From: Candidatus Kapaibacterium sp.
Lineage (GTDB): Bacteria; Bacteroidota; Ignavibacteria; Kapaibacteriales; UBA2268
Reading direction: 5' to 3'
Assembly (NCBI GenBank): GCA_013414795.1
Contig: CP058732.1
Span: 2,145,950 to 2,209,949 of the forward strand
DNA length: 64,000 nucleotides
The notes under the pieces are model-generated. The model worked only from the letters and a program-made list of their open reading frames with translations, was not told where the DNA came from and searched no databases. Made by a program: the position numbers and the translations under genes. Shown here in pieces: positions 9,198 to 26,725 of the stretch; position 1 is the stretch's first letter; each line of letters opens with the position of its first letter.

Positions 9198-9317
9198 AAA
9201 GTAGCACAGACATCCCTGTCTGTGTCCTCAACCCAACACCACATTAGTACAATAAACAAAAGCGCTAAAAAAATTAGCCCCACAGCCAAAAAAGTAGCAC
9301 AGACATCCCTGTCTGTG
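9198..9317. repeat. Two copies of a palindromic element, part of the outer inverted repeat of the CRISPR locus
   Basis: CACAGACATCCCTGTCTGTG occurs at 9205-9224 and again at 9298-9317, each preceded by AAAAAAGTAG. It is nearly a perfect inverted repeat. A third copy in inverse orientation lies at 26694-26713 on the far side of the cas locus. From 9285 onward the sequence matches the reverse complement of the stretch ending at 26725. Between 9058 and 9197 only low-complexity sequence and a decayed palindrome near 9147-9176 are visible; no gene is supported. Confidence 0.85.
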
Positions 9318-9344
9318 TAACACCAGAACAATTCAATCAAAAAG

Positions 9345-9467
9345 TGGGGGCGAATAATCATTCGAAGAGGGGGCGAATAATCATTCGAAGTAGGGGCGAA
9401 TAATCATTCGAAGTAGGGGCGAATAATCATTCAATGTAGGGGCGAATAATCATTCGCCCCTACAATG
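9345..9467. repeat. Five tandem copies of a short palindromic (REP-like) element
   Basis: The core GGGGCGAATAATCATTCG is repeated five times with a spacing of about 23 bp, ending in a full palindrome GTAGGGGCGAATAATCATTC plus CGCCCCTAC (9437-9463). The opposite trailer (26617-26667) has only two copies in inverse orientation, so copy number has changed since the two sides diverged. Hairpins of this kind are typical of intergenic REP elements. No coding sequence is seen here. Confidence 0.9.
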
Positions 9468-9470
9468 ACA

Positions 9471-12165
9471 ATCGTAATCCTAACATATTTCTATTAAAAC
9501 GTGTAGGGGTGTAAAGCAATACACCCCTACGTTGTCATAAACCTAAAATAGTCCGATTAAAACTTTGAAATTTTTGCCTCAAGTTTAGTCGAGGCAAAAG
9601 TGTCGTAATCCTAACATAGTCCGATTAAAACGCAGGAAGCAAATGTCAAGTCTGAGGAGTTAATGAAGTCGTAATCCTAACATAGTCCGATTAAAACTAT
9701 TATTGGCATCGTGACGAGGATAAGGCGTGGAGCGTGTCGTAATCCTAACATAGTCCGATTAAAACTTATTCTATCGCTGTATGAAGAGAGGTGTCAGTCT
9801 GTCGTAATCCTAACATAGTCCGATTAAAACAAAGAAACACAATTAAAAGAAGCAGTAAAGGTAGCAAAGTCGTAATCCTAACATAGTCCGATTAAAACTC
9901 GACGGCAAAGACCTTTTTGTTTATCAGCCCGACGGGGAGTCGTAATCCTAACATAGTCCGATTAAAACGCTACAACATCCGAAGCCTCCTGGTGCTACTG
10001 CTACGGAACGTCGTAATCCTAACATAGTCCGATTAAAACGTTAAACTAAAAAAAAGGAGGACTTATGAAACCAAATTGTCGTAATCCTAACATAGTCCGA
10101 TTAAAACTCAAGAGTTGTTCTGGCGTATCCTATTAGACAACGGGTCGTAATCCTAACATAGTCCGATTAAAACTCAAGAGTTGTTCTGGCGTATCCTATT
10201 AGACAACGGGTCGTAATCCTAACATAGTCCGATTAAAACAATTATACCAAAAAGAGACCTGGATTAGATATTATGGTCGTAATCCTAACATAGTCCGATT
10301 AAAACTTTGAAGGCAAAAATCGATAAGTTTAAAATTGAGTCGTAATCCTAACATAGTCCGATTAAAACGTAGGAACTTGTTCCTAAAAACAAAATTTTAA
10401 AAGTCGTAATCCTAACATAGTCCGATTAAAACGCGGTAAAACCATAGGAGCGTGGAGCGTGGGCTGGTCGTAATCCTAACATAGTCCGATTAAAACAATT
10501 TTTCAAGCAAAACATTTATTTACGACAGAGGTGAGTCGTAATCCTAACATAGTCCGATTAAAACTCCGAAAAAATAATTAATTTTTTTTGAACCCCACAC
10601 GTCGTAATCCTAACATAGTCCGATTAAAACATTGTTTGGTTTGATTGATTTGGATTGTTCATAAAAGTCGTAATCCTAACATAGTCCGATTAAAACATAC
10701 CAGAAAATTGGTCGAGAATAGAACCGTTGAAAATGTCGTAATCCTAACATAGTCCGATTAAAACCCAATTATTCAAAAGAAGATGACGTCATTGTTTTAT
10801 CGTCGTAATCCTAACATAGTCCGATTAAAACTAATGAATAGTCTCTATCTTATGATTAGAGATAGAGAAGTCGTAATCCTAACATAGTCCGATTAAAACT
10901 TTTTAAACCCTCCTAATTGTTAAACATTAGTTGAGTCGTAATCCTAACATAGTCCGATTAAAACGAGCCGAGCGTAACCGTGAAATTGTTTCAACAGCAA
11001 CTGAGTCGTAATCCTAACATAGTCCGATTAAAACTGCTAAGCGATGAGGAGACACCCTGCCCCGATTGCAAGTCGTAATCCTAACATAGTCCGATTAAAA
11101 CTTTTTCTTACCTTTAAAGATTGAACACGTTGAAGTCGTAATCCTAACATAGTCTGATTAAAACTTAGTGTATTATTGTGTTTATTCTTATTGAGTAGTG
11201 TCGTAATCCTAACATAGTCCGATTAAAACGAAACCAAATGTATTCACGATATTTGCATCTGCACTTGGTCGTAATCCTAACATAGTCCGATTAAAACTAC
11301 GATGTCGATTATTTTTGACCAGTCTTTATTCCGTCGTAATCCTAACATAGTCCGATTAAAACTAATTTATAGTTTCTACTTATTTGTCAAAGATAACTTG
11401 TCGTAATCCTAACATAGTCCGATTAAAACTTGACTTGAAAGATACTGATGTCATTGTAGTTGACGGTCGTAATCCTAACATAGTCCGATTAAAACAAAAA
11501 ACAACATTCCTAATTTTCGATATGACAAATGGGTCGTAATCCTAACATAGTCCGATTAAAACGCGGACGCTGACGGACACGGCTGGTGTTGAAATCGAGG
11601 TCGTAATCCTAACATAGTCCGATTAAAACGGAAACCATTTGTCGTTAAATCAATAACAACGTCAAGTCGTAATCCTAACATAGTCCGATTAAAACTTTAA
11701 AGGTTGGCAACGCTTTAAAAGAGAGTATTGCTAGTCGTAATCCTAACATAGTCCGATTAAAACTACAATTTCAAAGGCACGGGGGCGGAACAAAAAAAAT
11801 GTCGTAATCCTAACATAGTCCGATTAAAACCGAAGCAATGGGCAAGGATCGTTACGAAAATTAACCAGTCGTAATCCTAACATAGTCCGATTAAAACCGT
11901 AGCATGTATTTACTGCGTTTATTTATTTATAAAAGTCGTAATCCTAACATAGTCCGATTAAAACTGCTTTAGTCCACGATTTGTTTTTACTCTTTAAGGT
12001 CGTAATCCTAACATAGTCCGATTAAAACTTTTTACTACTTGGTAGCGTTTTTTTTTGTTTTTTTTGTGTCGTAATCCTAACATAGTCCGATTAAAACCGG
12101 AGAAGATGTTGGATTTTATCAACTTCATGATTTAGGTCGTAATCCTAACATAGTCCGATTAAAAC
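9471..12165 (-). CRISPR. CRISPR array 1, 41 repeats, read on the minus strand
   Basis: A 30-nt repeat recurs every 63-71 bp. In the direction of transcription it starts GTTTTAATCGG and ends GGATTACGAC; on the plus strand the reverse complement is seen. I count 41 units from 9471 to 12165: 38 perfect, one with a single change (11135-11164), and two clearly degenerate at the far end (9471-9500 and 9534-9563). Spacers are about 33-40 nt. Decay at the low-coordinate end and the AT-rich leader at 12166-12430 both place the leader on the right, so new spacers enter near 12136. One spacer is duplicated (10108-10143 and 10174-10209). Repeat identity with array 2 means both feed the same Cas6 and Csm complex. 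Confidence 0.99.
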
Positions 12166-12430
12166 TAGTAAACTCGACTTCGATTCTATGCGGGTTTTGG
12201 CTCTATTTTTCCCCGTTTTTTGTTATAAAAAGTCTCCACTTGTCAAAGAACTTTTGGATTTCTCCTTGAAAACATTTCTAAATTATTACTTTTTTTTCAA
12301 TTATGCAAATTTTTTTAAAAATTCATCTCGAGACAAGTTAAGTCCTTGATTTTCAAGATATTCATTTTTTAGTCCTGCCTAAATCGGCAATTTTTACCAA
12401 AATTTCTCCCCATCTCGAGACTATTTTTTC
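12166..12430 (-). promoter_or_regulatory. Leader of CRISPR array 1
   Basis: This 265-bp AT-rich stretch is the reverse complement of 25005-25269 with only about five differences, and each copy abuts the first repeat of its array. That conservation, position and composition mark it as the leader, which should carry the array promoter and the spacer-integration signals. In the sense direction it holds two copies of GTCTCGAGATG about 85 bp apart and a TTGACA about 75 bp before the first repeat. The 17 bp between it and the cas2 stop contain nothing recognisable. Confidence 0.92.
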
Positions 12431-12447
12431 AAGAAAAATCATTGTAA

Positions 12448-12717
12448 CTAATCGATAAAATTACTAGTTAGCCGACTTTTGTCAATTCCAAAATTTAGTT
12501 TTTCAAGATATTTATCGGTTTCCATAATGTATATGATAATCGAATCCTCTTCTGGGTCGATAATTTCCAAAGCCTTGTCGATAAGGTCGTCGATTTGGCC
12601 TGGTGACAGATGTCCTTCGAATACGGAATTTTGAATCCAATGAAGATATTGGCGAAAAAGTTTTAAAACTTTTGCGACACGCTTTTCGTTAATATCGTAA
12701 ACTGCAATACAAAACAT
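12448..12717 (-). CDS. cas2: CRISPR integration subunit Cas2
   Basis: About 89 residues. The ATG at 12715-12717 is chosen because it gives MFCIAVYDINEKRVAKVLK, the standard Cas2 opening with the Asp of the ferredoxin-like fold; a TTG two codons upstream is also possible. Cas2 bridges two Cas1 dimers in the integrase that inserts spacers. The gene is 40 bp downstream of cas1 and reads toward leader 1, so array 1 could also receive read-through transcription from cas1-cas2. Confidence 0.95.
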   Translation of the reverse strand: MFCIAVYDINEKRVAKVLKLFRQYLHWIQNSVFEGHLSPGQIDDLIDKALEIIDPEEDSIIIYIMETDKYLEKLNFGIDKSRLTSNFID

Positions 12718-12757
12718 TTTCAATCAACCATTTTTTGACAAATACGAAATGAAATTT

Positions 12758-13831
12758 TTACCACCAAATTTTAAATGGCTCGTATTCTTTTTCTTTTTTG
12801 ATATGGCTAACCAAATTGTAACATTCCAATCTAATGAGGCGGCGGTAGGAAACATTATGTTTGATTTTCCTGTGAAAAATAGTTTTGTTTAACCGAGAAT
12901 CGAATTCTTTAACAATGATTTTACGGCCAGTTGGGTTTACGAAACAGCCACCATCGCGGTATTCGAAATGTTCTAAACGAATGGAGCCATTGTTGAGAAG
13001 TTTGAAAATGATTCGGTCGGCGAGCAATGGTTTGAAGATTTCAGCAATGTCGTAAGCCAGAGAGAAACGATTGTCACCTGGTTCGTGAAGGAAAGAAATA
13101 AAAGGATTGAGTTGTGTGCGGTAGATTTCGGAAATAACGGCAGAATAGACAAGAGCATTGGAAAAAGAAATTAAAGAATTCATTGGGTCGGTTGGTGGAT
13201 GGAATTCGCGTTTTGTAAATTTAATTTCAGAATCAATAAAGTAGTTGAAAGTGGAATAGTAAATTTTGCGAATGTTGGCTTCGATTCCCATTAATTGTGA
13301 TGTGTAGACGGCATTGTCAATTGAAGCAACCAAACTTTTAATTTCATCAATCTTTTCTTGGAGAACTGGTGATTTTGCGGAATAGCGAGAAATATTTTTA
13401 ATAATGTTATGAGAGGCTGCTTTAATAATTTTGCGAGCAATTACTATACGACGAGAGTATTTTAGATAGAAAGAACATTGTTTAAGGATGAAAGTGCCGC
13501 TATAAGATTCGTTAATCGGATAGAAAGTGCCTTTGTACCGACCGAAGAAATTAAACATATGGATAGGAATGTAGTTCGAGGCAGCGAATTCAATGAAACG
13601 AGAATTGAAAAGAACATCAGCAAAAATGAAGATAGAATCGATTTCTTGAATGGGAATAACAGTTCTTTGTGTGGAATCGATTAAACGAGGGGAATCATTG
13701 GAGGAGAGCAAGATTTGTTCTTGAAGGTTCTCATCTTCGTCGGCGGGAACTTCGACGCTTGGCTCGTAGCAAATAGTGTTGTCTTTTCTGTAAAGTTTTC
13801 CAGGTCGAAAGAAGTAGAAATGTTTTTTCAT
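12758..13831 (-). CDS. cas1: CRISPR integrase Cas1
   Basis: A 357-residue Cas1 starting at the ATG at 13829-13831, supported by GGAG just upstream. Metal-binding residues are all present: Glu184 in MGIEANIRKIYY, His249 in ISFLHEP and Asp261 in LAYDIAEIFKP. The N-terminal beta domain carries an acidic stretch (about residues 26-55) that looks longer than usual. It forms a minus-strand pair with cas2 and is divergent from the lipoprotein-csm operon. No cas4 or reverse transcriptase accompanies it, so acquisition should be from DNA. Confidence 0.97.
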   Translation of the reverse strand: MKKHFYFFRPGKLYRKDNTICYEPSVEVPADEDENLQEQILLSSNDSPRLIDSTQRTVIPIQEIDSIFIFADVLFNSRFIEFAASNYIPIHMFNFFGRYKGTFYPINESYSGTFILKQCSFYLKYSRRIVIARKIIKAASHNIIKNISRYSAKSPVLQEKIDEIKSLVASIDNAVYTSQLMGIEANIRKIYYSTFNYFIDSEIKFTKREFHPPTDPMNSLISFSNALVYSAVISEIYRTQLNPFISFLHEPGDNRFSLAYDIAEIFKPLLADRIIFKLLNNGSIRLEHFEYRDGGCFVNPTGRKIIVKEFDSRLNKTIFHRKIKHNVSYRRLIRLECYNLVSHIKKEKEYEPFKIWW

Positions 13832-13887
13832 AGCGCAACTCCAAATAAAAAATAAAGAAACGAAAAACAATAGGGATAGAAGAAAAA

Positions 13888-13910: not shown

Positions 13911-13980
13911 AAAACATTCTTTTGCTTTCAATTGTTTTTTGGAGAAGATAATTTTGTTTTTTTAAAAATATTGGTGGAAT

Positions 13981-14472
13981 ATGAAACGAATTTTTACCTT
14001 TTTTGCAATTTCCATTTTCGTTTTATCTTGCAGTTCTTACAAACCGCCGAAGCAGTATAATTTCGTAAATCAATTTGACTACAATTTGCCATACGAAGCA
14101 GTTTGGAGCAAAGTCATCCAATTTTTCGCAGAATTGGGTCTACCAATTAGAAATATGGACAAGTCGTCGGGTTTCATAGCAACAGACGTTATGTCTGCCA
14201 GTGGTGGAATTGGAACATTGATGGATTGCGGCGAACCGGGTTATGCCTTAAATTACAATGCGGAATTTGAAAAGCCAACGGGTTACTTTAATGTTTTAGT
14301 AATACCTTTGAATCAGAATCAAACAAGAGTAAAAGTTACCGCTTTTTACAAGGCCTATTATGTTGTTTATAAGAATGAAAATTTTATGCGATACAAACAA
14401 AGCGAGGAAGTTTTTAATTGTAACTCGACGGGCTTTTTGGAACAAGCATTATTAAATTATATTGCAAAATAA
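13981..14472 (+). CDS. Lipoprotein of unknown function inside the CRISPR-Cas locus
   Basis: A 163-residue protein with a lipoprotein signal peptide: MKRIFTFFAISIFVLSCSS, where the Cys in LSC is the expected lipidation site. The mature part has the pattern PYEAVWSKVIQFFAELGLPI, then an SGFIATD strand and a C-terminal GFLEQALLNYI helix, which recalls BamC/NlpB-like or SRPBCC-type lipoproteins. No nuclease, CARF or HEPN motif is visible. It is the first gene of the plus-strand operon, 44 bp before the CARF-winged-helix gene and divergent from cas1, so it is enclosed by CRISPR genes. It may be a bystander or an envelope-linked accessory. I do not recognise a specific family. Confidence 0.75.
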   Translation: MKRIFTFFAISIFVLSCSSYKPPKQYNFVNQFDYNLPYEAVWSKVIQFFAELGLPIRNMDKSSGFIATDVMSASGGIGTLMDCGEPGYALNYNAEFEKPTGYFNVLVIPLNQNQTRVKVTAFYKAYYVVYKNENFMRYKQSEEVFNCNSTGFLEQALLNYIAK

Positions 14473-14516: not shown

Positions 14517-15593
14517 ATGCTAATGGCAACTAATAGCAAAAAGCAACGGTTACTTTTAGCTTTATGCGGATTAAATCCACAAATAATAACTGAAGGATTG
14601 TATTGTCTTACAGTTAAGCAGAAAATTAACTTTGATAAGATAATAATATTTACAACAGATGAATGCAAAGAAAATATTGCAAGCAATTTGAAGCGGGAAT
14701 TGAAGAGGATGAGCAAAAAATTTAAATTCAAGCCACCAATTTTCAACGAAGAATGTATTTACTCAGTCGATGAAGAGATTTCCGCCGACGGAAAGGAAAA
14801 TAAATTCGCAGAACTGGTTTTCAAAACGATTTGGGAATTGACCTCCAACGATAGGAACGTTTTATTTTGTTTGCTTAGCGGCGGAAGAAAGACAATGAGT
14901 GTCGATTTAGCCACCGCAATGACTTTGTTAGGAGGCGAGCATGACAAGATGTTTCACGTCCTTGTTTCGAAAGAATTCGAAAGCAAACGGCTATATTTTC
15001 CGGAAAATGAAAAGGACGGCCAAAACATAAAGTTAATCGAAAAGCCTTTTATAAAGTTGCGGAATAAGTTTCTTCAACAAGTTGGGAAGGCGGATATAAG
15101 TTTTTCAAACTTAATTGAAAATATCCAGCGTGAAATCGACCAATCTTTTACACTCCAACCTTTGGTTTTTGTTGTTAAGGAGCGAAAAGTTAAAATCGGT
15201 GATAAGATAATTGAACTACCACCTTTTCAATTTGCTGTTTATTACTTTTTTGCAACAAAAGGAAGATTTATTCCAGGAGGCAAGAACTTTTCCCGTACGA
15301 ATTCAGAACGATTGTGGAAAATTTACAAGAGAGTGGCTTCGTCCTATGGGCATTTAGAAAGAGTTCGAAAATTTGGCTTCCAAAATGGAATTTTCGACTT
15401 CGAAGTGATACAAAAGGCAATATCAGTAATAAGGAGAAAAATAAGAACATTATTAAACAATAGTCCAATAGCAGAATATTACATTATTTCAGTTGAAGGT
15501 TCCTATGGAAAGAAGTTGTATGGGTTAAAGTTGCCTTCCAATTACATTTATGTAAAAAAAGGAAACAAAGAGTATGTCGCAAGCAAAATTTGA
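14517..15593 (+). CDS. CARF-winged-helix CRISPR-associated protein (NE0113 family)
   Basis: 358 residues. The N-terminal Rossmann/CARF-like half has LLALCGLNPQIITEGLYCL near residues 12-31 and the signature LSGGRKTMSVDLATAMTLLG at 120-139, both hallmarks of the NE0113-type CRISPR proteins. From about residue 225 the sequence (LPPFQFAVYYFFATKGRF, later VIRRKIRTLLNN and YGLKLP) looks like a winged helix. CARF domains bind cyclic oligoadenylate, so this is a plausible signal-responsive regulator; ring-nuclease activity has been suggested for the family and cannot be excluded. No HEPN or PD-D/ExK motif is seen. It overlaps cas10 by 20 bp. No strong ribosome binding site precedes either ATG (14517 or 14523). 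Confidence 0.85.
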   Translation: MLMATNSKKQRLLLALCGLNPQIITEGLYCLTVKQKINFDKIIIFTTDECKENIASNLKRELKRMSKKFKFKPPIFNEECIYSVDEEISADGKENKFAELVFKTIWELTSNDRNVLFCLLSGGRKTMSVDLATAMTLLGGEHDKMFHVLVSKEFESKRLYFPENEKDGQNIKLIEKPFIKLRNKFLQQVGKADISFSNLIENIQREIDQSFTLQPLVFVVKERKVKIGDKIIELPPFQFAVYYFFATKGRFIPGGKNFSRTNSERLWKIYKRVASSYGHLERVRKFGFQNGIFDFEVIQKAISVIRRKIRTLLNNSPIAEYYIISVEGSYGKKLYGLKLPSNYIYVKKGNKEYVASKI

Positions 15594-18111
15594 AATGGAG
15601 TATCTGGGCGCATTCCTCCACGACATTGGTAAATTTGCCTATCGTGCTGGAATATGGAAAGGCGACCACGAGGCTCGGGGGAAAAAGTTTATCGACACAA
15701 TTTTCAATACTCTAAGAATTAGCCATTATTCAAATGAATTTAATATCTCATTGTTAAAAACTTATGTTGAAAGGGGTTCAACAAATATTCAAATTGCTGA
15801 TGCAATTGCTGCCAAGGAAAGAGTATCCGAAAAAGGAAGTTCCTTGAAAACTCTTAGGCCCTTGGTTTCGATATTGTCAAGGGTTCAACTCTACGATGAT
15901 AAGCGGTTGCCCAAAATTCATTATTACAATCCATCCCCAATCAACTTTACAATAGATATGCCCAGGGCGACAAATCTGAATTCAACAAAGGATTGGAAGA
16001 TTGATGAGTTTTTTTTAAAATCTTATGAATCAACTTATGCCCAAACTTTTGTCAAGTTTGTAGATGAAATTTCCATTTTATACAACATTTTGAGTTTTCG
16101 ACCATTTTTTACAACTTTATACAAACTTTTTGAAAAATACACAAGTTTAATAAGTTCCGCAAGTTATGTCTCGAGCCCAGACATTTCCTTGTTCGACCAT
16201 TCTCGTGTAGTTGCTGCTTTAACTTCTTGTATAAGTTCGAGCCAAGCGGAGAACCAATGTTTGCTGGTCAAAGGAGATATATCTGGAATACAAAAGTTTA
16301 TATTCTACGACATTGAAGAAGCTACTCGTGCAGCAAAGCAATTGAGAGGGCGTTCGTTCTATGTCAGATTGCTTGCCGACACAGTGGCAAATTATATCAT
16401 TCGACAACTGGGTCTTTACGACGCCAATATTCTCTTTTGCAGCGGGGGACACTTCCTATTGCTTGTTCCTAACAACGAAGCGAACATTTCTAAACTGAAA
16501 GAAATCGAAAAGAGAATCAATCTTTCTCTTTTGGAAAAATTTGGCGGAATCCTACAAGTAGTTTTAGCATACGATAGTTATACGAAGGACTGGTTGGGGC
16601 AGAATTTCGATTTAATGTCAATCTTTTTGGATTATGAACTAAATACTGCTAAGACAAGAAAGTCCTTTTCGGTATTGAGTGAAGTAATGAATTTTGAGAT
16701 GGTAAGAGCCGAAGGCCTTGAGAAATTCGAAAAATTGTTCCAAGACATCGGCACCAATATTGTGAAAAGTGAATATTTATTGGAAATAGTGCATCCTGGT
16801 GGAGACCCTCGTAATTTCGATGGGGAGGGAACTATTCGCTTTGATGAACTTGGAACTATCTATTGTTTCGTTTCAAAGGATTTGTTACTTGAAAAATTGA
16901 AAAAACTTGAAACTTTCGATTTTGAGTATTGCATTATACATAACTTAAGAAATACCGATTTAAACGAAATTTACCAAATTGCTCAAAAATCACAAATTAG
17001 TTTCAAAGTTGCCTTTTCTTTTAAATATGTAGGTTCCTATGTCCCAACAGATAAAAAGCTAAATGATAAGCCTTTGACTTTTGAAGAGCTAGCAAATTTG
17101 GATGATGAAATTGATGAGGAAAACAAATCAGATGAAAACTCTGATGGAAGTTACCCCTTACTTGGAGTTGCAAAAATGGACGTGGACAATTTGGGAAGGA
17201 TATTAAGTGGTGGACTGAAAAAGCCAACACTTGATGGTAGTAAAGAAACTTTTTATTCTGTTTCTCGATTTGCTATGCTTTCCCGAGAATTGGATCGCTT
17301 CTTTTGTGGGCATATTAATAGTATCGCAGAAAAGCATCGAGTGTATCTTGTTTACGCTGGCGGCGACGACCTTTTCGCAGTGGGGAATTGGGCTAAAATT
17401 ATTGATTTCGTACAATCAGTTCAAAAAGAATTCCAAAAATTTTGTTGTGGAAACGAAAACATAACTATATCCTGCGGTACAGTATTTGTGAAGCCGAACT
17501 ATCCTGTCGCTCGTTTCGCCAAAGAAGCAAACGAACAATTGGAAAAAGCAAAAAGGACGTCACAGTTTAAGAATCAAATTTCAATTTTTTATCGCGAAGT
17601 CTCGTGGAGTAATTTCAACTTTTTACTAAATATTGGCAAACTACTTTACCAGACAGTTTCCGATAAAAATCTGAAAGATAAATTGCCGAGAAGTTTTATT
17701 CATCAATTGCTTACACTCACTCAGCAGTGTTTAGACGAAAATGGGAATATAGTTGTCGACAAGGTTCACCAGGTTACATCTAAACTCCATTATGCATTTG
17801 CCCGAAGAGAGTTAGACAACACGATACTAAGCCAAAAAGCTTTAAATGATAAATTAAACATTCAAATTGTATTAAATCAATTGGATGAGCAAAAGGAATT
17901 AAATAATGAAATTGAAGAATCATTCTTACGAATTTTCACGCGAAATTTTAATCGGCAGAAGGAAATAAATAATGAAATTAAAGAATCATTCATACGAATT
18001 TTTGCACGATATTTTATTATGTCTGAGCCGGAAATAAGAAAGTTCTGGTACAAGAATTTCCAAATACCAGCATCCTATGTGATTTTGAAAACAAGAAAAG
18101 TAAATAAATAA
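15574..18111 (+). CDS. cas10: Type III-A CRISPR large subunit Cas10/Csm1
   Basis: 845 residues. The N-terminal HD nuclease motif is intact (LHDIGK, His16-Asp17, followed by GDHEARG). A first palm-like domain begins near residue 230 (KGDISGIQKFIF). The second palm has AKMDVDNLGRIL and the catalytic GGDD at residues 596-599, so cyclic oligoadenylate synthesis is expected when target RNA is bound. The Cys-rich zinc site common in Csm1 linkers is not visible; that region is acidic instead. Near the C-terminus 22 residues are duplicated in tandem (see findings). The start at 15574 overlaps the previous gene; ATG at 15595 is an alternative directly before the conserved LGAFLHDIGK. Confidence 0.96.
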   Translation: MSQAKFEMEYLGAFLHDIGKFAYRAGIWKGDHEARGKKFIDTIFNTLRISHYSNEFNISLLKTYVERGSTNIQIADAIAAKERVSEKGSSLKTLRPLVSILSRVQLYDDKRLPKIHYYNPSPINFTIDMPRATNLNSTKDWKIDEFFLKSYESTYAQTFVKFVDEISILYNILSFRPFFTTLYKLFEKYTSLISSASYVSSPDISLFDHSRVVAALTSCISSSQAENQCLLVKGDISGIQKFIFYDIEEATRAAKQLRGRSFYVRLLADTVANYIIRQLGLYDANILFCSGGHFLLLVPNNEANISKLKEIEKRINLSLLEKFGGILQVVLAYDSYTKDWLGQNFDLMSIFLDYELNTAKTRKSFSVLSEVMNFEMVRAEGLEKFEKLFQDIGTNIVKSEYLLEIVHPGGDPRNFDGEGTIRFDELGTIYCFVSKDLLLEKLKKLETFDFEYCIIHNLRNTDLNEIYQIAQKSQISFKVAFSFKYVGSYVPTDKKLNDKPLTFEELANLDDEIDEENKSDENSDGSYPLLGVAKMDVDNLGRILSGGLKKPTLDGSKETFYSVSRFAMLSRELDRFFCGHINSIAEKHRVYLVYAGGDDLFAVGNWAKIIDFVQSVQKEFQKFCCGNENITISCGTVFVKPNYPVARFAKEANEQLEKAKRTSQFKNQISIFYREVSWSNFNFLLNIGKLLYQTVSDKNLKDKLPRSFIHQLLTLTQQCLDENGNIVVDKVHQVTSKLHYAFARRELDNTILSQKALNDKLNIQIVLNQLDEQKELNNEIEESFLRIFTRNFNRQKEINNEIKESFIRIFARYFIMSEPEIRKFWYKNFQIPASYVILKTRKVNK

Positions 18112-18524: not shown

Positions 18525-18544
18525 AATAATAAATGGGGTTTAAA

Positions 18545-19351
18545 ATGGTAGAATTTGTTGGAAATATCATATTGAAAGGCAAAATTGAATGTGTAACGGG
18601 TTTGCACATAGGTGGTTCAAAAGAAAAATTTGAAATTGGTGGTGTTGATTCTCCAGTCATTCGTGACCCAGTAACACATTATCCTTACATTCCTGGCTCT
18701 TCATTGAAAGGGAAATTACGTGCACTACTGACGTTCGAACTCGGGTTTGAAAAATTGGGGAATAACAGAATAAGAGAAAATGAAATTATCTATAATATTT
18801 TTGGTGCTGGTGCCAACGATGCTGCAAGAAAAGATGGACCAACAAGATTGATAGTTCGTGATGCTTATCCCGATAAGTCTACAATCCAGATGTGGGAAAA
18901 TCTCGATTCAGAATTAATGTACACTGAATTCAAGGCTGAAAATTCCATTGATAGGCTTACCAGCCAGGCAAATCCTCGATTTCTCGAACGTGTTGTTAAA
19001 GGTTCGCATTTTAACGTTGAATTTGTGTATGGAGTATACAAAATCAAAGAAAATTCTTTTGACGAACTCGAACATTTTAAATATTTCATCACTGCTTTAC
19101 GGTTGTTGGAAAACTCATATCTTGGTGGAAGCGGGACACGTGGTTACGGAAAAGTTGGTTTTAAGTTCCTCGAACCAATAGTTCTATTTAAAGAGGATTA
19201 CCAGAGCGGTAGCGAAAATTTTGTAAGGGCTTCGAAAGACCTCGATATCCTTATAAGTGAATTGTATCCAGATGGTTTCAAACATCTTCGCCTTTCGGAT
19301 TTTGATGATAACTTTATTGAGGAAAAGATAATAAGTAAGTTTAGAAAATGA
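18545..19351 (+). CDS. csm3: Type III-A CRISPR backbone RNase subunit Csm3
   Basis: About 268 residues from the ATG at 18545, preferred over 18533 because GGGG lies just before it. It is a RAMP protein with LHIGGSKEKFEIGGVDSPVIRD; the Asp in GGVDSP is residue 35 and corresponds to the catalytic aspartate that cuts target RNA every six nucleotides. YIPGSSLKGKLRALL and the C-terminal GGSGTRGYGKVGF glycine-rich loop complete the RAMP signatures. It overlaps csm4 by four bases. Confidence 0.96.
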   Translation: MVEFVGNIILKGKIECVTGLHIGGSKEKFEIGGVDSPVIRDPVTHYPYIPGSSLKGKLRALLTFELGFEKLGNNRIRENEIIYNIFGAGANDAARKDGPTRLIVRDAYPDKSTIQMWENLDSELMYTEFKAENSIDRLTSQANPRFLERVVKGSHFNVEFVYGVYKIKENSFDELEHFKYFITALRLLENSYLGGSGTRGYGKVGFKFLEPIVLFKEDYQSGSENFVRASKDLDILISELYPDGFKHLRLSDFDDNFIEEKIISKFRK

Positions 19352-20319
19352 AAGCAGTTTATATCTATCCAAAGTCTTCATTTGCAACGGAACTTCGTTC
19401 CGATACCCTTTGGGGGTTAATTATAATGGCAATCGGTTACGTCTGGTCCGAACAGAAACTAATTGAAATAATAAATAGTTTCCTTTATGGAGAAACGCCT
19501 TTCGTCCTTTCTTCGGCTTTTCCATTTCGAAAGAATAGCGAAGGAGAAATTCAACATTATTTACCAAGACCCTTTTTAAAACCAATGTTAAATATTAAAG
19601 ACGATGAAATAATAGACAAACGAAAAAAAACGAAGTCGATAAAATTTGTTATTAAGCCAATCTTTGAAAAAATCATCAATGGGGAAGTGGACGAAAAAGA
19701 ATTAATCGATTTTCTTTATAACAATTTAGATAATTTAGATTTTGCTATTGATCCGATAAAAGTTTCAAATCTCCATACTACCATTGATCCGATGACGGGA
19801 ACAACTCTTGAACTTGAGGGACGGGGTCAGTTATTTTTTACTTATGAGTTCTTTTTTCATAAAAATTATGAGGGCTTGTTTTTCCTTATTGATGGTGATG
19901 ATCTTTCTTTTATCGATCCAGCATTGAGATTCTTAACACATTTTGGGATTGGGGCTGACCACTCAATTGGAAAAGGGCATTTTGATTTTGAAATAAAGGA
20001 CTTTTCGTTTCGATTGCCGGAAAATCCAAATTCGTTCGTTACTTTGTCTCTTTACACCCCAACGGAAGACGAGTTGAACACGTTTATCCAAAACAAAGGT
20101 AATCTTTATTATGAATTAGTCCAAAGAAAAGGGATTATTGGTAGCCAATTTAAGAAAAAAGCGTTCGAAAAGAAACCGTTCTTTGCTTTTTCCGAAGGCT
20201 CTCGTTTTCCGGCTGTTGTTCCTAAGAAGTACTTGGGGAGAATCATAAAAACTATGGACGAACCCCCCGCTTTTTCATATTCTTTTGCTTTTCCTATTCC
20301 AGCAAGATTTAAGGAGTAA
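19348..20319 (+). CDS. csm4: Type III-A CRISPR RAMP subunit Csm4
   Basis: 323 residues. The opening SSFATELRSDTLWGLIIMAIGYVW and PFVLSSAFPF are typical of Csm4, which caps the complex at the crRNA 5' handle next to Cas10. A Gly-rich segment (GIGADHSIGKGHFDFEIKDF) occupies the RAMP loop position. Start ATG overlaps the csm3 stop; csm5 begins 3 bp after its stop, so the csm genes form one translationally coupled unit. Confidence 0.94.
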   Translation: MKAVYIYPKSSFATELRSDTLWGLIIMAIGYVWSEQKLIEIINSFLYGETPFVLSSAFPFRKNSEGEIQHYLPRPFLKPMLNIKDDEIIDKRKKTKSIKFVIKPIFEKIINGEVDEKELIDFLYNNLDNLDFAIDPIKVSNLHTTIDPMTGTTLELEGRGQLFFTYEFFFHKNYEGLFFLIDGDDLSFIDPALRFLTHFGIGADHSIGKGHFDFEIKDFSFRLPENPNSFVTLSLYTPTEDELNTFIQNKGNLYYELVQRKGIIGSQFKKKAFEKKPFFAFSEGSRFPAVVPKKYLGRIIKTMDEPPAFSYSFAFPIPARFKE

Positions 20320-20322
20320 ACT

Positions 20323-21996
20323 ATGGCTGTCTCCTTTTGGTTAAAGACAATCACACCTATTCACATTGGTTCTGGAAAAGAAATTGCACCCGAAGAGTAT
20401 TTTTACCACAATGGAAAATCGTTTAGAATCGACTTGGAACAATGCTTTAAGTTCTTAGGCGAAAAAGTTGGTTTTCAAACTTTAAAAGATAGGCTCCAAG
20501 ATTGGTCTGAATATATTATCCAAAATACTCAAATGACTCTTGAAACCCGAGCAAGAGAAAAGTACCAACTTTCTATTTTCGATTTCGTAACCAATTTCCT
20601 AAAAGATTCCTCATTGAAAAAAGTATTGGAAAGTGAAATTATAAACAACGAGCGGTTCCATCTTTACTTTCTCGAAAGTCCAGAAAAGCCCAGAACAAAT
20701 GTCATCGAAATAGCCAAACTTCCCGATAACTCTGCTTATATTCCCGGATCTTCTATTAAAGGTGTGATTCGAACTGCTTTGCTTTTCATTTCCATTTTGG
20801 AGCAACCGAATTTTAATTTCAATAGATTTATTCCACAAGGTTCAGAAAAAATTAAGCCAAAAGAACTTGACGACAGGCTTTACGAGGAATTTTTTTATTG
20901 TCGTTTCGAAGACCAAAGGCATTTTGATGCAAAATACGACCTTTTGAAATTTATTGGAGTTAGAGACTGTTACATTGTAGAAAGTAATGCCTCCAATCCT
21001 TTCGAGTTAATGAAAGTAGATTTGTTTCTGCGAAATGGAAAGACTCAACCACAAACTCCAACAGTAGAGTTAATCAAAGAAAATGTTGTTTTCAAAGGGG
21101 AAATTTTTGTCGATTTAAAGGCAATGAAACAAATTGCCAAAATGCTTCGTCCAGACGATTCAATAATTGATGAAAGAGGAAAAAAGGTCTGGATTGGCTT
21201 TGGAAGAAAATTTCAAAGGTTGTTCCAAATCGATATCCAATCGCTCTTGGATGATGGTAAAGAAGAAGAAATCGAGGGAAGAATCATCGAAAGAATTTTC
21301 ATTGCTCTTAGTCTCTTCGCCAAAGCAGTTCATAATTCAGACCTTAGTTGGCTGGAAGACTTTTCTAAATCGAAAAAACCAGATACTTCGGTTCTTATTA
21401 ACGGGCTTAAGTCCTTCTATCAAAATCGGTTAAATCCAATACCCAACAAATTCAAAATTGGATGGGCAAGTGGTTTCACCGCAACTACTGTATTTCTTGC
21501 TCTGCTTAACAAACCCGATATACAAAATGATTTAAAAGAAATTTATAAAAAATACATTCATAGGCGGGGGAAGAATATCCCAATGGAGCAATTCCCAATC
21601 TCCCGTCGGATGGCTATGGACAACAACTTGCAACCACTTCCACTCGGTTGGGTCGAATTTTCTTTATCTGAACTGATTAAAACCCAGGAGACACATCCAA
21701 CCGAGCCATCTGAGGAAGTTGAAACTAACCCGGAGGAAACCAAGCCTCAATTTCCAATCGAAATGAAGATTTTCAAAGGAACAACCAATATCCCAGCAAA
21801 AGTGGTAAGCAATACTTCCAAGCCCTTCAAAGTTGAACTCTTGGTAAAAGGTTACGAAGATAAAATTTACAATTGTAGTGGCGTTGATAATCTTGCTTCT
21901 ATTCCTCCTGGAACACTTATTTACACAATGGTAACCGACTTCGATACCAAGAAAAACGAAATCCGTATGTTGAAATTTATTAAGCAGATTAGTTAA
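20323..21996 (+). CDS. csm5: Type III-A CRISPR RAMP subunit Csm5 with extra C-terminal domain
   Basis: 557 residues, considerably longer than the roughly 350-430 usual for Csm5. The RAMP core is clear: LKTITPIHIGSGKEIAPEEY at the N-terminus and SAYIPGSSIKGVIRTALL near residues 137-154, with the WASGFTATTVFLALL glycine-rich segment near 385. An AAGGAG site precedes the ATG. After about residue 450 there is a Pro/Glu/Thr-rich linker, then an 80-residue strand-rich unit (477-557) that is not part of normal Csm5. Csm5 binds the 3' end of crRNA and recruits trimming nucleases, so the extension may be an RNA- or partner-binding module. Confidence 0.93.
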   Translation: MAVSFWLKTITPIHIGSGKEIAPEEYFYHNGKSFRIDLEQCFKFLGEKVGFQTLKDRLQDWSEYIIQNTQMTLETRAREKYQLSIFDFVTNFLKDSSLKKVLESEIINNERFHLYFLESPEKPRTNVIEIAKLPDNSAYIPGSSIKGVIRTALLFISILEQPNFNFNRFIPQGSEKIKPKELDDRLYEEFFYCRFEDQRHFDAKYDLLKFIGVRDCYIVESNASNPFELMKVDLFLRNGKTQPQTPTVELIKENVVFKGEIFVDLKAMKQIAKMLRPDDSIIDERGKKVWIGFGRKFQRLFQIDIQSLLDDGKEEEIEGRIIERIFIALSLFAKAVHNSDLSWLEDFSKSKKPDTSVLINGLKSFYQNRLNPIPNKFKIGWASGFTATTVFLALLNKPDIQNDLKEIYKKYIHRRGKNIPMEQFPISRRMAMDNNLQPLPLGWVEFSLSELIKTQETHPTEPSEEVETNPEETKPQFPIEMKIFKGTTNIPAKVVSNTSKPFKVELLVKGYEDKIYNCSGVDNLASIPPGTLIYTMVTDFDTKKNEIRMLKFIKQIS

Positions 21997-21999: not shown

Positions 22000-22896
22000 A
22001 TGCAAAATCTAAAATTAAGTCTTATACAAACCCCAGAAAATTTCCAGATTTTAGACATTCTGTTAGAAAATAATGGCATCATCTCTCCTTTGGAACTAAA
22101 CACGGTCGAAATTCCAAGCGAAATTGATTGGTCGAAAGGTGTGGTTATCGCTGGACGAGCACCGATTTGGCTTTATACATATCTTGTCCATCAATGCCAT
22201 CCCTCCGCTTGGGTTGCTATTTACGACCCACGCTGGGGAGCAATTGTAATCCAAACACACAAAATCGGTGCCCCATCTGTCGGCGAAATTATCCAACCGA
22301 GCGCCATCCTAAAATACTATAAATTGCCAGATTTAAACAAAAAAATCATCGCCTTTTTGGGAAATCCACACACTGGCAAATCTGTCTTTTTAAAAGTGCT
22401 TCGCAACACGCTGCGAAAAACACTTCCCGACGAAGTTTTCCATCGTGGCTTATTTGTTATTAAGGCTTGCCCCGACGGCGAAGGCGACTGGTTCGGCGAA
22501 CTTCCCGAAGACCAGGGTAAAATCTATCGCTACAAAAACCGTTTCGATGACGATTTCATCCGTAAAGTTGTCTCCAATATCGAGTTGATGAAAAATGAAA
22601 AATCCATTCTTTTAATTGACTGTGGTGGAAAAATTGATAAGTACAATCAAGAAATTCTCAATAAATGTACTCACTCTATAATTCTTGGTACTGATGACCT
22701 TTCAATTGCTGAATGGCGGGGTGCTTCGAAACTTGCTGGCGTTGATATTCTGGCGGAGGTAATTTCTTCAAAAAAAGATGTATCAAAGGTTCTGAACACT
22801 CAACCCTTGCTCGTTGAATACGGTTTTCTGGACAGAAACAAAAAGGACTTCTTACCAATACCCGATGAGTTAATTGACAAAATTATAAATAAATAA
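22000..22896 (+). CDS. Csx3 ring-nuclease domain fused to a P-loop ATPase
   Basis: 298 residues. Residues 35-100 match Csx3 (Crn3), which degrades cyclic tetra-adenylate: GVVIAGRAPIWLYTYLVH, then WVAIYDPRWGAIVIQTHK and VGEII. The expected catalytic His is His87; the acidic partner nine residues later is Glu96, where Asp is described in the archaeal enzyme. From residue 115 a P-loop domain follows with Walker A GNPHTGKS (121-128) and a Walker B-like ILLIDCGG near 208-215. Csx3-ATPase fusions are known but the role of the ATPase is not established. The gene starts 3 bp after csm5 and ends 1 bp before the CARF-HEPN gene, so it belongs to the csm transcript. Confidence 0.88.
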   Translation: MQNLKLSLIQTPENFQILDILLENNGIISPLELNTVEIPSEIDWSKGVVIAGRAPIWLYTYLVHQCHPSAWVAIYDPRWGAIVIQTHKIGAPSVGEIIQPSAILKYYKLPDLNKKIIAFLGNPHTGKSVFLKVLRNTLRKTLPDEVFHRGLFVIKACPDGEGDWFGELPEDQGKIYRYKNRFDDDFIRKVVSNIELMKNEKSILLIDCGGKIDKYNQEILNKCTHSIILGTDDLSIAEWRGASKLAGVDILAEVISSKKDVSKVLNTQPLLVEYGFLDRNKKDFLPIPDELIDKIINK

Positions 22897-22897
22897 A

Positions 22898-24094
22898 ATG
22901 GGCATTGGTATTACTTTCCTTGGTACTGGTAACTACCAAAAGGTAGTATATAGTTACAATAACACAACGGTCGAAACTGAATACTTTCCTTTTGCGTTTT
23001 GTAAATTCTTTAATTTAGATGAAATTTACATTGTACTAACCGAAGAATCTAAACAAAAGCATTTTGGGTCTATTGAAAAACTTTTTCAATGCTGTGACAA
23101 TCCCCCAAACCTTCGCCAGGTTTCCATTCCTCGAGGTCAAAATCAAGATGAACTATGGACAATTTTCGATATCCTTTCAAACTCGCTCCCAGAAAAAGCC
23201 TCGATTTATTTCGACATCACTCACGCTTTTCGCTCTATTCCATTTATGATTTTTGCTGTTTGTAATTTTTTGACTGTGGTGAAAAATGTGAAAATCGAAA
23301 AAGTTGTCTACGGTGCTTACGAATCAAAAATTAACAATGTGGCTCCCGTTTTCGATTTGACCCCCTTCCTCGAGTTAATTAATATGAGCACTGCTGTAAA
23401 TGAATTCCTTCGCTTTGGCAATTCTTTGTCCCTTAAATCTATTTTGAAAAAAATCCACTCCGAGTCGTATAAATTCAACTTGCCCGAAAAACCAAAATCC
23501 CTTACTCCTTTTGCAGATACTCTTGCGAATCTTACCAATGCACTTTCGATTGCCAGAGTAGAAGAAGCAATCCGTCATTCAAACAAACTTGCACAAAAAA
23601 TCCAGAATTTCACCCAAGAAATTACACACTTTAACCAAACAAAACCCTTCTCCTTTTTGTTGAACAAAATACAAGACCGCTTTTCAAATACCGCTCTCAA
23701 TTTCCAGAGTATTTTTTCCAGGGATGGTTTTAAAGTCCAGTTAAAATTGCTCGACTACTACATTGAAACTGAACAATATTTTCCCGCTATAACTCTTGCC
23801 CGTGAAATTGTTGTTTCTTTCATTGCTTGTAGAAATGGTCTTAATCCAAAAAAAAGAGACCACAGAGCGGAAGTCGAGCAACAACTTGGAAAATTGGCGA
23901 AAGACTTTGAAAACCAACAAAACCTTAATAAGTATGAAAATGATTTGGGCAGACTTTGGTCTATCGTTTCGACGACTCGAAATGATATAAATCACGCTGG
24001 AATGAACGAAAATCCAATGGATACAGCCAAAGCAATTAACAATATCAACAAAGTTTGCTTACTCGTTAAAGACTTTATTTCAAAGTACGATTGA
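22898..24094 (+). CDS. CARF-HEPN ribonuclease (Csx1/Csx2, TM1812-like)
   Basis: 398 residues. The N-terminal CARF domain opens ITFLGTGNYQKVVYSY and carries FDITHAFRSIPF at 105-116, the signature of TM1812-type proteins. The helical C-terminal part ends with a HEPN active site, RNDINH (Arg361, His366; RX4H). Such proteins are non-specific RNases switched on by cyclic oligoadenylate from Cas10, giving dormancy or abortive infection. This is the system's only obvious cOA-activated nuclease. It converges on cas6 with a 20-bp overlap of the 3' ends. Confidence 0.93.
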   Translation: MGIGITFLGTGNYQKVVYSYNNTTVETEYFPFAFCKFFNLDEIYIVLTEESKQKHFGSIEKLFQCCDNPPNLRQVSIPRGQNQDELWTIFDILSNSLPEKASIYFDITHAFRSIPFMIFAVCNFLTVVKNVKIEKVVYGAYESKINNVAPVFDLTPFLELINMSTAVNEFLRFGNSLSLKSILKKIHSESYKFNLPEKPKSLTPFADTLANLTNALSIARVEEAIRHSNKLAQKIQNFTQEITHFNQTKPFSFLLNKIQDRFSNTALNFQSIFSRDGFKVQLKLLDYYIETEQYFPAITLAREIVVSFIACRNGLNPKKRDHRAEVEQQLGKLAKDFENQQNLNKYENDLGRLWSIVSTTRNDINHAGMNENPMDTAKAINNINKVCLLVKDFISKYD

Positions 24095-24884
24095 CTACCT
24101 CCAACATTCCAAATCCCAACCCATTCTTCTTTCCAATACCACACTCATAGGCTACTTTTTGCATTTCCACATCAGCAGTAATTTTTATTGGGCACATAAA
24201 TCCTTTCACCCTTGTTTCCCTTTCGCTTCCCTCGGCTATTGTTACCATTTTGCTGACCCCCTCTGCTCCGCCTTTGCTTCGAATGTATTCCCTATCCAAT
24301 TCAATTCTCAACTCGCCATTGTATGTTGATTTATTTACAATTTCATATTTCTTCAAAAGATTATTTGCCAAAGCCTCCTCAATTCCTTCCTCGTCGACTC
24401 GGTAAAAATGTTCATAGACTTTCCCGTTAAGTTCCTTCATAGTCGATGTAACTGTTGGCGAAAGCATAATGTAATCCATTTCCCTCACAAATTTCGGGTC
24501 TTCAATATGTTCAATGTTTTGCACTCGAAATTCGCTACTCACCGACCGATTGGCAATAATAATTCTACTTCGCTTGAAAATTCCGATGATTAAATTTTCT
24601 ACAATTTCGGTTTTGAAGGGAGACGAGAAAAGAAACCAGCAGTTCCTGGTTCCTTTTATAATTTCCCTTTCTTGTTTGAAATCGTGCACAAATAGTCGAG
24701 AAAAAGTAAACAACTTCAAGCGTTTTCCATCCCGAGCAACAAAGCCTTGGTCGTGCAACCAACTTGCAAATTCGGGGGAACTTTCGTAGAAAATCTTGTA
24801 CAAAGCAGAACTCAAAGCATAATTATAATTGATTGGGATTTGAAAATCCTTTTTGGTAGATTTCAACAAAATTTTCAATCTCAC
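24075..24884 (-). CDS. cas6: CRISPR pre-crRNA endoribonuclease Cas6
   Basis: 269 residues starting at a GTG (24882-24884) with GGAGA upstream. It has the Cas6 pattern: YNYALSSALYKIFYE with Tyr near residue 22, SPEFASWLHDQGF with probable catalytic His44, and the C-terminal glycine-rich loop CGIGKKNGLGFGMLEV. Cas6 cuts each repeat to release crRNAs with an 8-nt handle; the repeat's last eight bases ATTACGAC would be that handle. It is transcribed away from array 2, back-to-back with leader 2, so its promoter lies in 24885-25004. Confidence 0.94.
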   Translation of the reverse strand: MRLKILLKSTKKDFQIPINYNYALSSALYKIFYESSPEFASWLHDQGFVARDGKRLKLFTFSRLFVHDFKQEREIIKGTRNCWFLFSSPFKTEIVENLIIGIFKRSRIIIANRSVSSEFRVQNIEHIEDPKFVREMDYIMLSPTVTSTMKELNGKVYEHFYRVDEEGIEEALANNLLKKYEIVNKSTYNGELRIELDREYIRSKGGAEGVSKMVTIAEGSERETRVKGFMCPIKITADVEMQKVAYECGIGKKNGLGFGMLEVVNRTLK

Positions 24885-25004
24885 AAACGTTCTCCAAATA
24901 TTAAAATCAAAATTAACACAACGAAAACAAAAAAAAGCAAAAATTTGAAATTCATCGTTTTCAACTAAGTGTTTAATATTTAATGAATTGAAAAAATTTT
25001 TCTC

Positions 25005-25269
25005 GAAAAAATAGTCTCGAGATGGGGAGAAATTTTGGTAAAAATTGCCGATTTAGGCAGGACTAAAAAATGAATATATTGAAAATCAAGGACTTAACTT
25101 GTCTCGAGATGAATTTTAAAAAAAATTTGCATAATTGAAAAAAAAGTAATAATTTAGAAATGTTTTTAAGGGGAAATCCAAAAGTTCTTTGACAAGTGGA
25201 GACTTTTTATAACAAAAAACGGGGAAAAATAGAGCCAAAACCCGCATAGAATCGAAGTCGAGTTTACTG
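25005..25269 (+). promoter_or_regulatory. Leader of CRISPR array 2
   Basis: 265 bp, about 98% identical to the reverse complement of the array 1 leader; differences are only a handful of single bases. It ends at the first repeat (25270). It contains GTCTCGAGATG at about 25014 and again near 25100, and TTGACA at 25189-25194. Exact equal length of the two copies suggests one duplication or inversion event, or ongoing gene conversion. A promoter is expected in the last 80 bp but I cannot assign it with confidence. Confidence 0.92.
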
Positions 25270-26609
25270 GTTTTAATCGGACTATGTTAGGATTACGACC
25301 CTTGATTTTATTGTATTCTTGTTCACTAAGTATAGTTTTAATCGGACTATGTTAGGATTACGACTTTTTCTAAGTAGTCTCTAATTAAAAAATAGAGAGT
25401 TTTAATCGGACTATGTTAGGATTACGACTATTGTGTTTTTATTTTTTTTCTAAGTAGTCTCTAATTAGTTTTAATCGGACTATGTTAGGATTACGACTGA
25501 ATATTGATTTTCTCTTTTTCTTGAACTGGTTGGGTTTTAATCGGACTATGTTAGGATTACGACTATTTGCCTAAAGGGACAACTGAAATCCAAAACGCTG
25601 GGTTTTAATCGGACTATGTTAGGATTACGACATTGGATCGATCTGCACAGGCAGGAAAAATTCCTGCCAGTTTTAATCGGACTATGTTAGGATTACGACA
25701 TTTACAAATTTATTTTTTGTTTGACTTTTTTTCAAGTTTTAATCGGACTATGTTAGGATTACGACTCAAACCAACAAAATCAAACGTTAACACTACAACG
25801 TTTTAATCGGACTATGTTAGGATTACGACGTTACAAATAACAAAAACAACTTGAAAAAATTTAAATAGTTTTAATCGGACTATGTTAGGATTACGACTTG
25901 TTGGTTTGATTGATTTTGTTGGTTCATAATAACAGTTTTAATCGGACTATGTTAGGATTACGACTGAATAGCCGATAATAAAAAACTAATCACGTCGACG
26001 GGGTTTTAATCGGACTATGTTAGGATTACGACTTCAAAAATACAAAGAAAAAAACTCGATTTCAACGTTTTAATCGGACTATGTTAGGATTACGACTAAT
26101 AACACCTATACTTTGTTAAACATATCCCCTGGTTTTAATCGGACTATGTTAGGATTACGACTTACAATTGCTTTTGCTTTAATTGGTTGACGGTAGTTTT
26201 AATCGGACTATGTTAGGATTACGACTCCCTATTTGCAAGCATTTGTCTTTTTCAATGGTTTTAATCGGACTATGTTAGGATTACGACTTATCTAAAAAAG
26301 ATAATGACATAGCAAAAATTTCAAGTTTTAATCGGACTATGTTAGGATTACGACGATAAAGAAGTGGTTATCAATCTATTAAAAGAATAGTTTTAATCGG
26401 ACTATGTTAGGATTACGACGAATGCTTCGTAATTACTTTTCAAATATTTTCCAGTTTTAATCGGACTATTTTAGGATTACGACCTTCGTCCACGCCATCC
26501 TCTTTTTAAGGCTTGGGTTTTAATCGGACTATTTTAGGTTAATGACAACGTAGGGGTGTAATGCTTTACACCCCTAAACGTTTTAATAGAATTATGTTAG
26601 GATTACGAT
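25270..26609 (+). CRISPR. CRISPR array 2, 21 repeats, read on the plus strand
   Basis: The same 30-nt repeat as array 1, here directly in its sense orientation. Units start at 25270 and recur every 62-69 bp to 26609. The first 18 are perfect; 26454 has one change, 26517 and 26580 are degenerate, marking the old, leader-distal end. Two spacers overlap in sequence (25365-25398 and 25429-25467 share about 23 nt), and the last spacer (26547-26579) is a palindrome related to that at the end of array 1. The array has half as many spacers as array 1, with no identical spacer seen between them. Confidence 0.99.
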
Positions 26610-26725
26610 TGTCATTGTAGGGGCGAATGATTATTCGCCCCTACCTCGAATGATTATTCGCCCCTACTTTTTGATTGGATTGTTCTGGTGTTACACAGAC
26701 AGGGATGTCTGTGCTACTTTTTTGG
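26610..26725. repeat. Outer inverted repeat of the CRISPR locus, right copy
   Basis: Read in reverse complement this region repeats 9285-9470 in the same order: the CACAGACA...TGTCTGTG palindrome (26694-26713), a stretch ending in TTTGATTG, and REP-like palindromes (26617-26667, two units against five on the left). The match ends at 26725. Together with the degenerate repeats this brackets the whole 17.4-kb locus. No transposase and no target duplication are visible. Confidence 0.9.

What the first reader, a model, noticed from the sequence alone, without database searches (positions are those of the whole stretch)
9285..26725. Mirror-symmetric type III-A locus: inverted arrays with shared leaders and trailers
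The locus reads outer repeat, array 1 (minus), leader, cas genes, leader, array 2 (plus), outer repeat, with each left element matched in inverse orientation on the right. Both arrays use the same repeat and both leaders face the cas genes. This implies duplication with inversion of a whole array including its old end, and it provides long homologous inverted repeats through which the 12-kb cas core could flip. I do not recall a named locus type with both leader and trailer preserved on each side.
Basis: partly seen in the sequence, partly recalled or inferred. Interest (0 to 1): 0.72.

Follow-up and report, generated by a model that had tools for sequence, protein, structure and literature searches.

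The report
Mirror-image CRISPR arrays around cas genes
A bacterial CRISPR immune locus carries its memory array twice, with matching predicted start and end regions, in mirror image on either side of one set of defence genes; the second array likely arose by an inverted duplication, whereas related bacteria with arrays on both sides show them head-to-tail.

Summary
A complete type III-A CRISPR-Cas core (12448-24884) lies between two arrays with one repeat: 41 repeats left (9471-12165), 21 right (25270-26609). The inner flanks (leaders) match at 268/273, the outer flanks (trailers with an outward-reading terminator-like hairpin) at 99/104. The copies differ at scattered bases and share only their last spacer, so an assembly echo is unlikely.

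The duplicated unit is one array cassette, from within 10 nt of the cas2 stop to the outer hairpin. Five relatives with the same core show no array within 7.5-8.6 kb beyond cas6, so the cas6-side array is probably derived. The locus sits where a same-genus genome has the two flanking genes about 80 bp apart.

Of 77 other Csm2- or Cas10-bearing loci fetched (38 with at least 1.5 kb on both sides), 7 have same-repeat arrays on both sides, all head-to-tail. One (G314) preserves leader and trailer on both sides, so that feature is not unique; the inversion is, in this sample. A Haloarcula type I-B locus is mirrored too, but its trailers are unrelated. Flipping of the core was not testable.

Verdict: real; new variant of a known kind; moderate interest.

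The parts
9205..9224 (-). second terminator-like hairpin beyond array 1, between the array and the next gene on the same strand
   Evidence: lies in a direct repeat (9195-9225) of 9288-9318
9284..9470 (-). left trailer/outer repeat: five hairpin half-units (GAATGATTATTCGCCCC), then terminator-like hairpin 9317-9298
9471..12165 (-). CRISPR array 1: 41 repeats, 40 spacers, degenerate repeats at the outer (left) end
12166..12439 (-). leader 1 (the stretch that matches leader 2); two GTCTCGAGATG motifs (12324-12334, 12411-12421)
12448..12723 (-). cas2
   Evidence: PF09827 2.8e-22, TIGR01573 over cut-off
12758..13831 (-). cas1 (Cas1b family)
   Evidence: PF01867 6.8e-80, TIGR03641 over cut-off
13981..14472 (+). 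small lipoprotein-like gene (by eye) of unknown role inside the core, kept in G004 (52%)
   Evidence: (weak, below Pfam cut-off)
14517..15593 (+). CARF-domain protein (Cas_NE0113/CARF5 family)
15574..18111 (+). cas10/csm1; HD (LHDIGKF) and GGDD motifs present in the translation
   Evidence: TIGR02578 6.8e-140; sequence
18123..18524 (+). csm2
   Evidence: PF03750 4.3e-30
18533..19351 (+). csm3
   Evidence: TIGR02582 4.2e-70
19348..20319 (+). csm4
   Evidence: TIGR01903 6.3e-50
20323..21996 (+). csm5
   Evidence: TIGR01899 5.6e-24
22000..22896 (+). csx3/crn3 ring-nuclease family protein of the Csx3-AAA form
   Evidence: TIGR02579 1.6e-25, PADLOC Csx3-AAA 2.1e-52
22898..24094 (+). csx1/csm6-type CARF-HEPN protein
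   Evidence: PADLOC CARF2--CARF_HEPN 3.4e-105; no Pfam hit
24075..24884 (-). cas6
   Evidence: PF01881 2e-24, TIGR01877 over cut-off
24996..25269 (+). leader 2 (the stretch that matches leader 1), between cas6 and array 2; two GTCTCGAGATG motifs (25014-25024, 25101-25111)
25270..26609 (+). CRISPR array 2: 21 repeats, 20 spacers, degenerate repeats at the outer (right) end
26610..26727 (+). right trailer/outer repeat: two hairpin half-units, then terminator-like hairpin 26694-26713

Best explanation
This is a type III-A CRISPR-Cas locus with two arrays in mirror image around one cas core, matching at their inner and outer flanks, and it likely arose by inverted duplication of the whole cas2-side array cassette (leader, array, trailer, terminator-like hairpin) to the cas6 side. 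Inferred steps: the ancestor had one array next to cas2; a segment from just after the cas2 stop to the outer hairpin was copied in inverse orientation to the far side; both leaders would then have served Cas1-Cas2 as insertion sites, so new spacers accumulated separately while the shared old ones were lost except the terminal one. Both arrays are predicted to be transcribed outward from their inner leaders and to stop at the outer hairpins, feeding crRNAs to one Csm effector. The whole unit lies between two genes that are neighbours in a same-genus genome, so the locus was likely gained there as an island (or lost from the relative).
For: Both flanks match in inverse orientation: inner 268/273 (score 521, best of 50 shuffles 36), outer 99/104 (score 183, best shuffle 28). 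The inner match starts within 10 nt of the cas2 stop. The terminal spacer and its two degenerate repeats are shared. Five relatives with the same core (G004, G034, G064, G066, G067) have 7.5-8.6 kb beyond cas6 and no array there; three (G004, G066, G067) show two array repeats each on the cas2 side at a contig end, in the other two the contig ends before or just after that point. In G004 one contig ends inside the cas2-side array and another begins with array repeats whose last one is altered, as for the two ends of a single array. G001 keeps the two flanking genes about 80 bp apart; 12 of its 16 listed ORFs there match window ORFs in the same order.
Against: The relatives are fragmented assemblies, and arrays break assemblies. 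No genome seen carries the intermediate state (one array at this chromosomal site). The near-absence of shared spacers means that the duplicated array may have been very short, or that its contents were replaced; the data do not tell which. Which array is the older copy would be blurred by any past flip of the core. The scan found fewer terminator-like sites in the region (9) than shuffles gave (mean 14.6), so the hairpins count by position and not by number. Spacer uptake and transcription were not measured.
Confidence: 0.83

Rival explanations
1. Invertible cas core: homologous recombination between the leaders or arrays flips the 12-kb core, and the mirrored state is kept as a switch or a population polymorphism.
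For: Inverted arms of about 270 nt at 98% inside and 104-153 nt at 95-96% outside, plus 30-nt repeats in inverse orientation on both sides. The 96 leader columns next to the first repeat show no difference except the last base; this would fit gene conversion, but there are too few differences in all to show it.
Against: No flipped state seen. No relative examined carries both arrays, so the orientation of the core relative to the flanking genes could not be compared. Nothing in the locus obviously needs a flip to be expressed.
Confidence: 0.08
2. The outer repeats are terminal inverted repeats of a mobile element that carries the whole locus.
For: The locus lies at a junction that is closed in G001. 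The TAGGGG hairpin family has 5 sites in this genome, 4 of them at the two ends of this locus, none in G001, G002 and G004, and 66 in G003, which suggests imported ends.
Against: No transposase, integrase or recombinase recognised among the ORFs of 9284-26727 (small overlapping ORFs were not profiled). No target-site duplication seen by eye just outside the ends. The outer match runs on into the array trailer and has about the same divergence as the leaders, so one duplication explains both.
Confidence: 0.06
3. Composite locus: array 2 came from a different, related CRISPR locus and was not copied from array 1.
For: Spacers are almost wholly different. Cas1, Cas2 and Cas6 match I-B-labelled models best in PADLOC, so modules have been exchanged at some time.
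Against: 268/273 and 99/104 identity of the two flanks and a shared terminal spacer; by contrast the leader of G004 aligns with leader 1 at only 193 of 283 aligned positions, and the leader was not found in 59 relatives beyond fragments of at most 59 nt.
Confidence: 0.06
4. Assembly artefact.
For: Single assembly; no reads held here.
Against: Copies differ by substitutions, by unit number (5 against 2) and in all spacers but the last; an echo would be identical.
Confidence: 0.03

Closest known systems
Haloarcula sinaiiensis plasmid pHsi540, type I-B locus (NZ_CP073368.1)
   Same: [quoted passage not shown] leaders related (score 44 against best shuffle 23).
   Different: Type I-B; leaders only distantly alike (43/57 local match); one array uses a repeat that differs at one base; trailers not alike (score 18 against best shuffle 26).
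Haloferax volcanii type I-B, CRISPR loci P1 and P2
   Same: PMC7521656 (passages seen): two loci flank the cas cluster, leaders 95% similar, both take up spacers.
   Different: Type I-B. Relative orientation not stated in the passages seen. In a related species, Haloferax alexandrinus pBNX82-2, the two arrays are head-to-tail.
   Same: Arrays with nearly the same repeat on both sides of the core; leader (192/206) and trailer (341/390) both preserved.
   Different: Direct orientation, not inverted.
Two-array genomes of types I-D, I-E, I-F
   Same: [quoted passage not shown] I-D favours different orientations.
   Different: Same passages: III-A typically has both arrays before the cas locus in the same orientation, so the window departs from the III-A norm.

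Membership tests
Type III-A CRISPR-Cas | Cas10/Csm1 with Csm2-Csm5 | tested here: met
   Csm1, Csm2, Csm3, Csm4, Csm5 over NCBIfam cut-offs
Type III-A CRISPR-Cas | Cas10 HD and GGDD motifs intact | tested here: met
   read from the translation (LHDIGKF, AGGDDL); the meaning of the motifs is recalled
Type III-A CRISPR-Cas | Cas6 and arrays beside the core | tested here: met
Type III-A CRISPR-Cas | crRNA production and targeting of transcripts | not testable with these tools
   no RNA data; no protospacer found for the few searches made
Whole-array duplication (leader plus trailer) | both flanks homologous between the two arrays | tested here: met
Mobile element with terminal inverted repeats | own transposase or integrase | tested here: not met
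   none recognised among the ORFs of the locus; small overlapping ORFs were not profiled
Mobile element with terminal inverted repeats | target-site duplication | tested here: inconclusive
   none seen by eye outside 9284 and 26727; the G001 intergenic stretch is too diverged for a base-exact empty site
Invertible DNA segment | both orientations observed | not testable with these tools
   no reads, no relative with both arrays at this site

The most novel reading that the evidence does not exclude
The mirror geometry is selected: with head-to-tail duplicated arrays, recombination between them deletes the cas core, whereas with inverted arrays it can only turn the core around. The locus would be a deletion-proof, reversible two-array architecture in which each flip also swaps which array sits next to cas1-cas2.
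Probability: 0.1. Interest if true: 0.6.

Novelty: new variant of a known kind. Interest (0 to 1): 0.38.

Why it matters
[quoted passage not shown] Direct and inverted versions now stand side by side in one bacterial class (G314 and the window), which makes a simple prediction testable: head-to-tail pairs should lose their cas genes by recombination more often than mirrored pairs. It also offers a natural test of whether one Cas1-Cas2 pair feeds two near-identical leaders equally.

Tried and rejected
Outer repeat as a genome-wide dispersed element that matches by chance: rejected for the match as a whole, because the terminator-like hairpin has only 3 sites in this genome at the stringency used, all at this locus, though the TAGGGG hairpin within the outer repeat belongs to a family that is dispersed in G003.

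Opposite array direction (leaders outside), suggested by the ATTAAAAC end of the repeat read the other way (that such ends mark the crRNA tag is recalled): rejected, because the degenerate repeats and the shared spacer are outside, the end hairpins read outward, and several related repeats end in ATTGAGAC or ATTACAAC in the orientation that puts the leader next to cas2.

Targets of the spacers: array 1 (9600-12167) against 50,697 phage records gave no match (array 2 was not searched); exact cores of 3 of 60 spacers against the viral contigs gave none; 18 matches of 16-17 nt between spacers and fetched loci were taken as chance. So spacer strand could not be used to confirm direction.

Leader in relatives: the DNA search gave matches in 19 of 60 genomes, the window's own included, but outside the window's genome they were fragments of at most 59 nt in AT-rich sequence and were not counted as leaders.

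Papers: searches listed no mirrored III-A locus with leader and trailer on both sides; I saw listings and, for five papers, passages only, so this is not proof of absence. Paired inverted loci in Sulfolobus are recalled by me; the passages of PMC4390879 that I saw do not state it. Passages of PMC4117759 and PMC3468723 gave nothing on array orientation around cas genes.

Survey limits: the 77 loci come from 75 genomes (G376 and G414 gave two each); 38 of 77 have at least 1.5 kb beyond the outermost detected cas gene on both sides; an array was counted from 3 units up. Left out: the window, two small contigs of G651, one fragment of G376, and the weak Cas10 match of G069. Only some loci were extended beyond 20 kb.
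Full report
What is there. The window is part of a one-contig genome of 2,660,650 bases. The nearest named relatives by Cas1 are labelled Ignavibacteria, Kapabacteria/Kapaibacteriota or Bacteroidetes. Between 9284 and 26727 lies a type III-A CRISPR-Cas locus: cas2 and cas1 on the minus strand, then a lipoprotein-like gene, a CARF gene, cas10, csm2-csm5, a Csx3-AAA protein and a CARF-HEPN protein on the plus strand, then cas6 on the minus strand.

The mirror. Array 1 (9471-12165, 41 repeats) and array 2 (25270-26609, 21 repeats) use the same 30-nt repeat in opposite orientation. The inner flanks match in inverse orientation at 268/273, the outer flanks at 99/104, with best shuffled scores of 36 and 28 against 521 and 183. 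The inner match starts within 10 nt of the cas2 stop, so the unit is an array cassette without coding sequence. All 61 repeat matches in the genome are at this locus.

Which end is the leader. Degenerate repeats and the one shared spacer are at the outer ends. A terminator-like hairpin with a T run reads outward on both sides, twice on the left, where the transcript would otherwise run into the next gene on the same strand (the run-on reading is inference). The scan as a whole found fewer terminator-like sites (9) than shuffles gave (mean 14.6), so these hairpins are evidence by position, not by number. In three relatives with the same core the array lies next to cas2. The motif GTCTCGAGATG occurs twice in each leader and nowhere else in the window (4 matches at up to 1 mismatch, 0.39 expected); it may be a leader recognition site.

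How it arose. Searching 54 genomes of the family with Cas10 found 7 with a match, the window included and one (G069) weak and partial. The other five share the core order as far as their contigs reach; none has an array within the 7.5-8.6 kb held beyond cas6, and three show array repeats at the cas2 side. In G004, the same-genus relative (its contig has the length of JAOADV010000020.1, MAG SKW242), one contig ends inside the cas2-side array and another begins with repeats of that array, the last one altered. So a single cas2-side array is the likely ancestral state. The copies differ by a few per cent, yet only the last of 40 and 20 spacers is shared; one further pair (A1_23 and A2_10) resemble each other in opposite orientation, and A1_30 and A1_31 are identical neighbours.

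Where it sits. The gene left of the locus (papain-like by eye) and the one right of it (membrane protein by eye; neither was profiled) are about 80 bp apart in G001; 12 of 16 ORFs listed for that G001 stretch match window ORFs in the same order. The right-hand gene is only 39% identical to its G001 counterpart; of the other eleven matches nine are 70-95% and the two furthest away are 31% and 49%. G002, G003 and G004 do not have this junction in the stretches held. G004 carries its cas core elsewhere. Of the five genomes of the genus only the window's and G004 have Cas10. The TAGGGG hairpin at the locus ends, which is also the last 'spacer', has 5 sites in this genome (4 here), 66 in G003, none in G001, G002, G004. 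I read this as an island that came with its ends from a genome rich in that element; loss in G001 is not excluded.

How unusual. Csm2 was found in 45 of 391 genomes of the class and in 45 of 395 of a phylum sample that overlaps it, the window's genome included in both. [quoted passage not shown] Only 38 of the 77 had at least 1.5 kb on both sides, so inverted cases may have been missed. In G314 both leader and trailer are shared by the two arrays; G143 shares one flank at 223/230 and the other at 87/101, the latter partly array sequence; G262 and G388 share the left flank, G410 and G414 the right flank, and G537 ran off its contig. As a check outside the phylum, 3 of 5 haloarchaeal plasmid records with the H. 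volcanii-type repeat were looked at: one is mirrored (Haloarcula sinaiiensis), two are direct.

Verdict.

Noticed in passing
leaders: 12324-12334, 12411-12421, 25014-25024, 25101-25111: GTCTCGAGATG occurs twice in each leader, 87 bp apart, and nowhere else in the 64-kb window; possible site for a regulator (a CARF protein is encoded in the core) or for the integration machinery.
   Followed up: partly
9504-9529 and 26551-26576; 9437-9462 and 26618-26643: The shared last spacer and the first outer element are palindromes of one TAGGGG..CCCCTA family that has 66 sites in same-genus genome G003 but only 5 in this genome.
   Followed up: partly
26754-28574: The membrane-protein gene right of the locus is 39% identical to its positional counterpart in G001 while its nearer neighbours are 70-95%; fast evolution or replacement.
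   Followed up: no
13981-14472: A lipoprotein-like gene lies inside the cas core between cas1 and the CARF gene and is kept in G004 (52%); role unknown.
   Followed up: no
25898-25934 and 10631-10666: Spacers A2_10 and A1_23 (and partly A2_8) resemble one another in opposite strand sense, as if both arrays sampled one invader region.
   Followed up: no
G314 trailers: The trailers of both G314 arrays hold repeat-like sequence interrupted by a short insert.
   Followed up: no
Cas1, 12758-13831: A 99% identical Cas1 (P0001, 5 member sequences, longest contig 2,442 bases) exists in a metagenome source; its surroundings could not be fetched.
   Followed up: no
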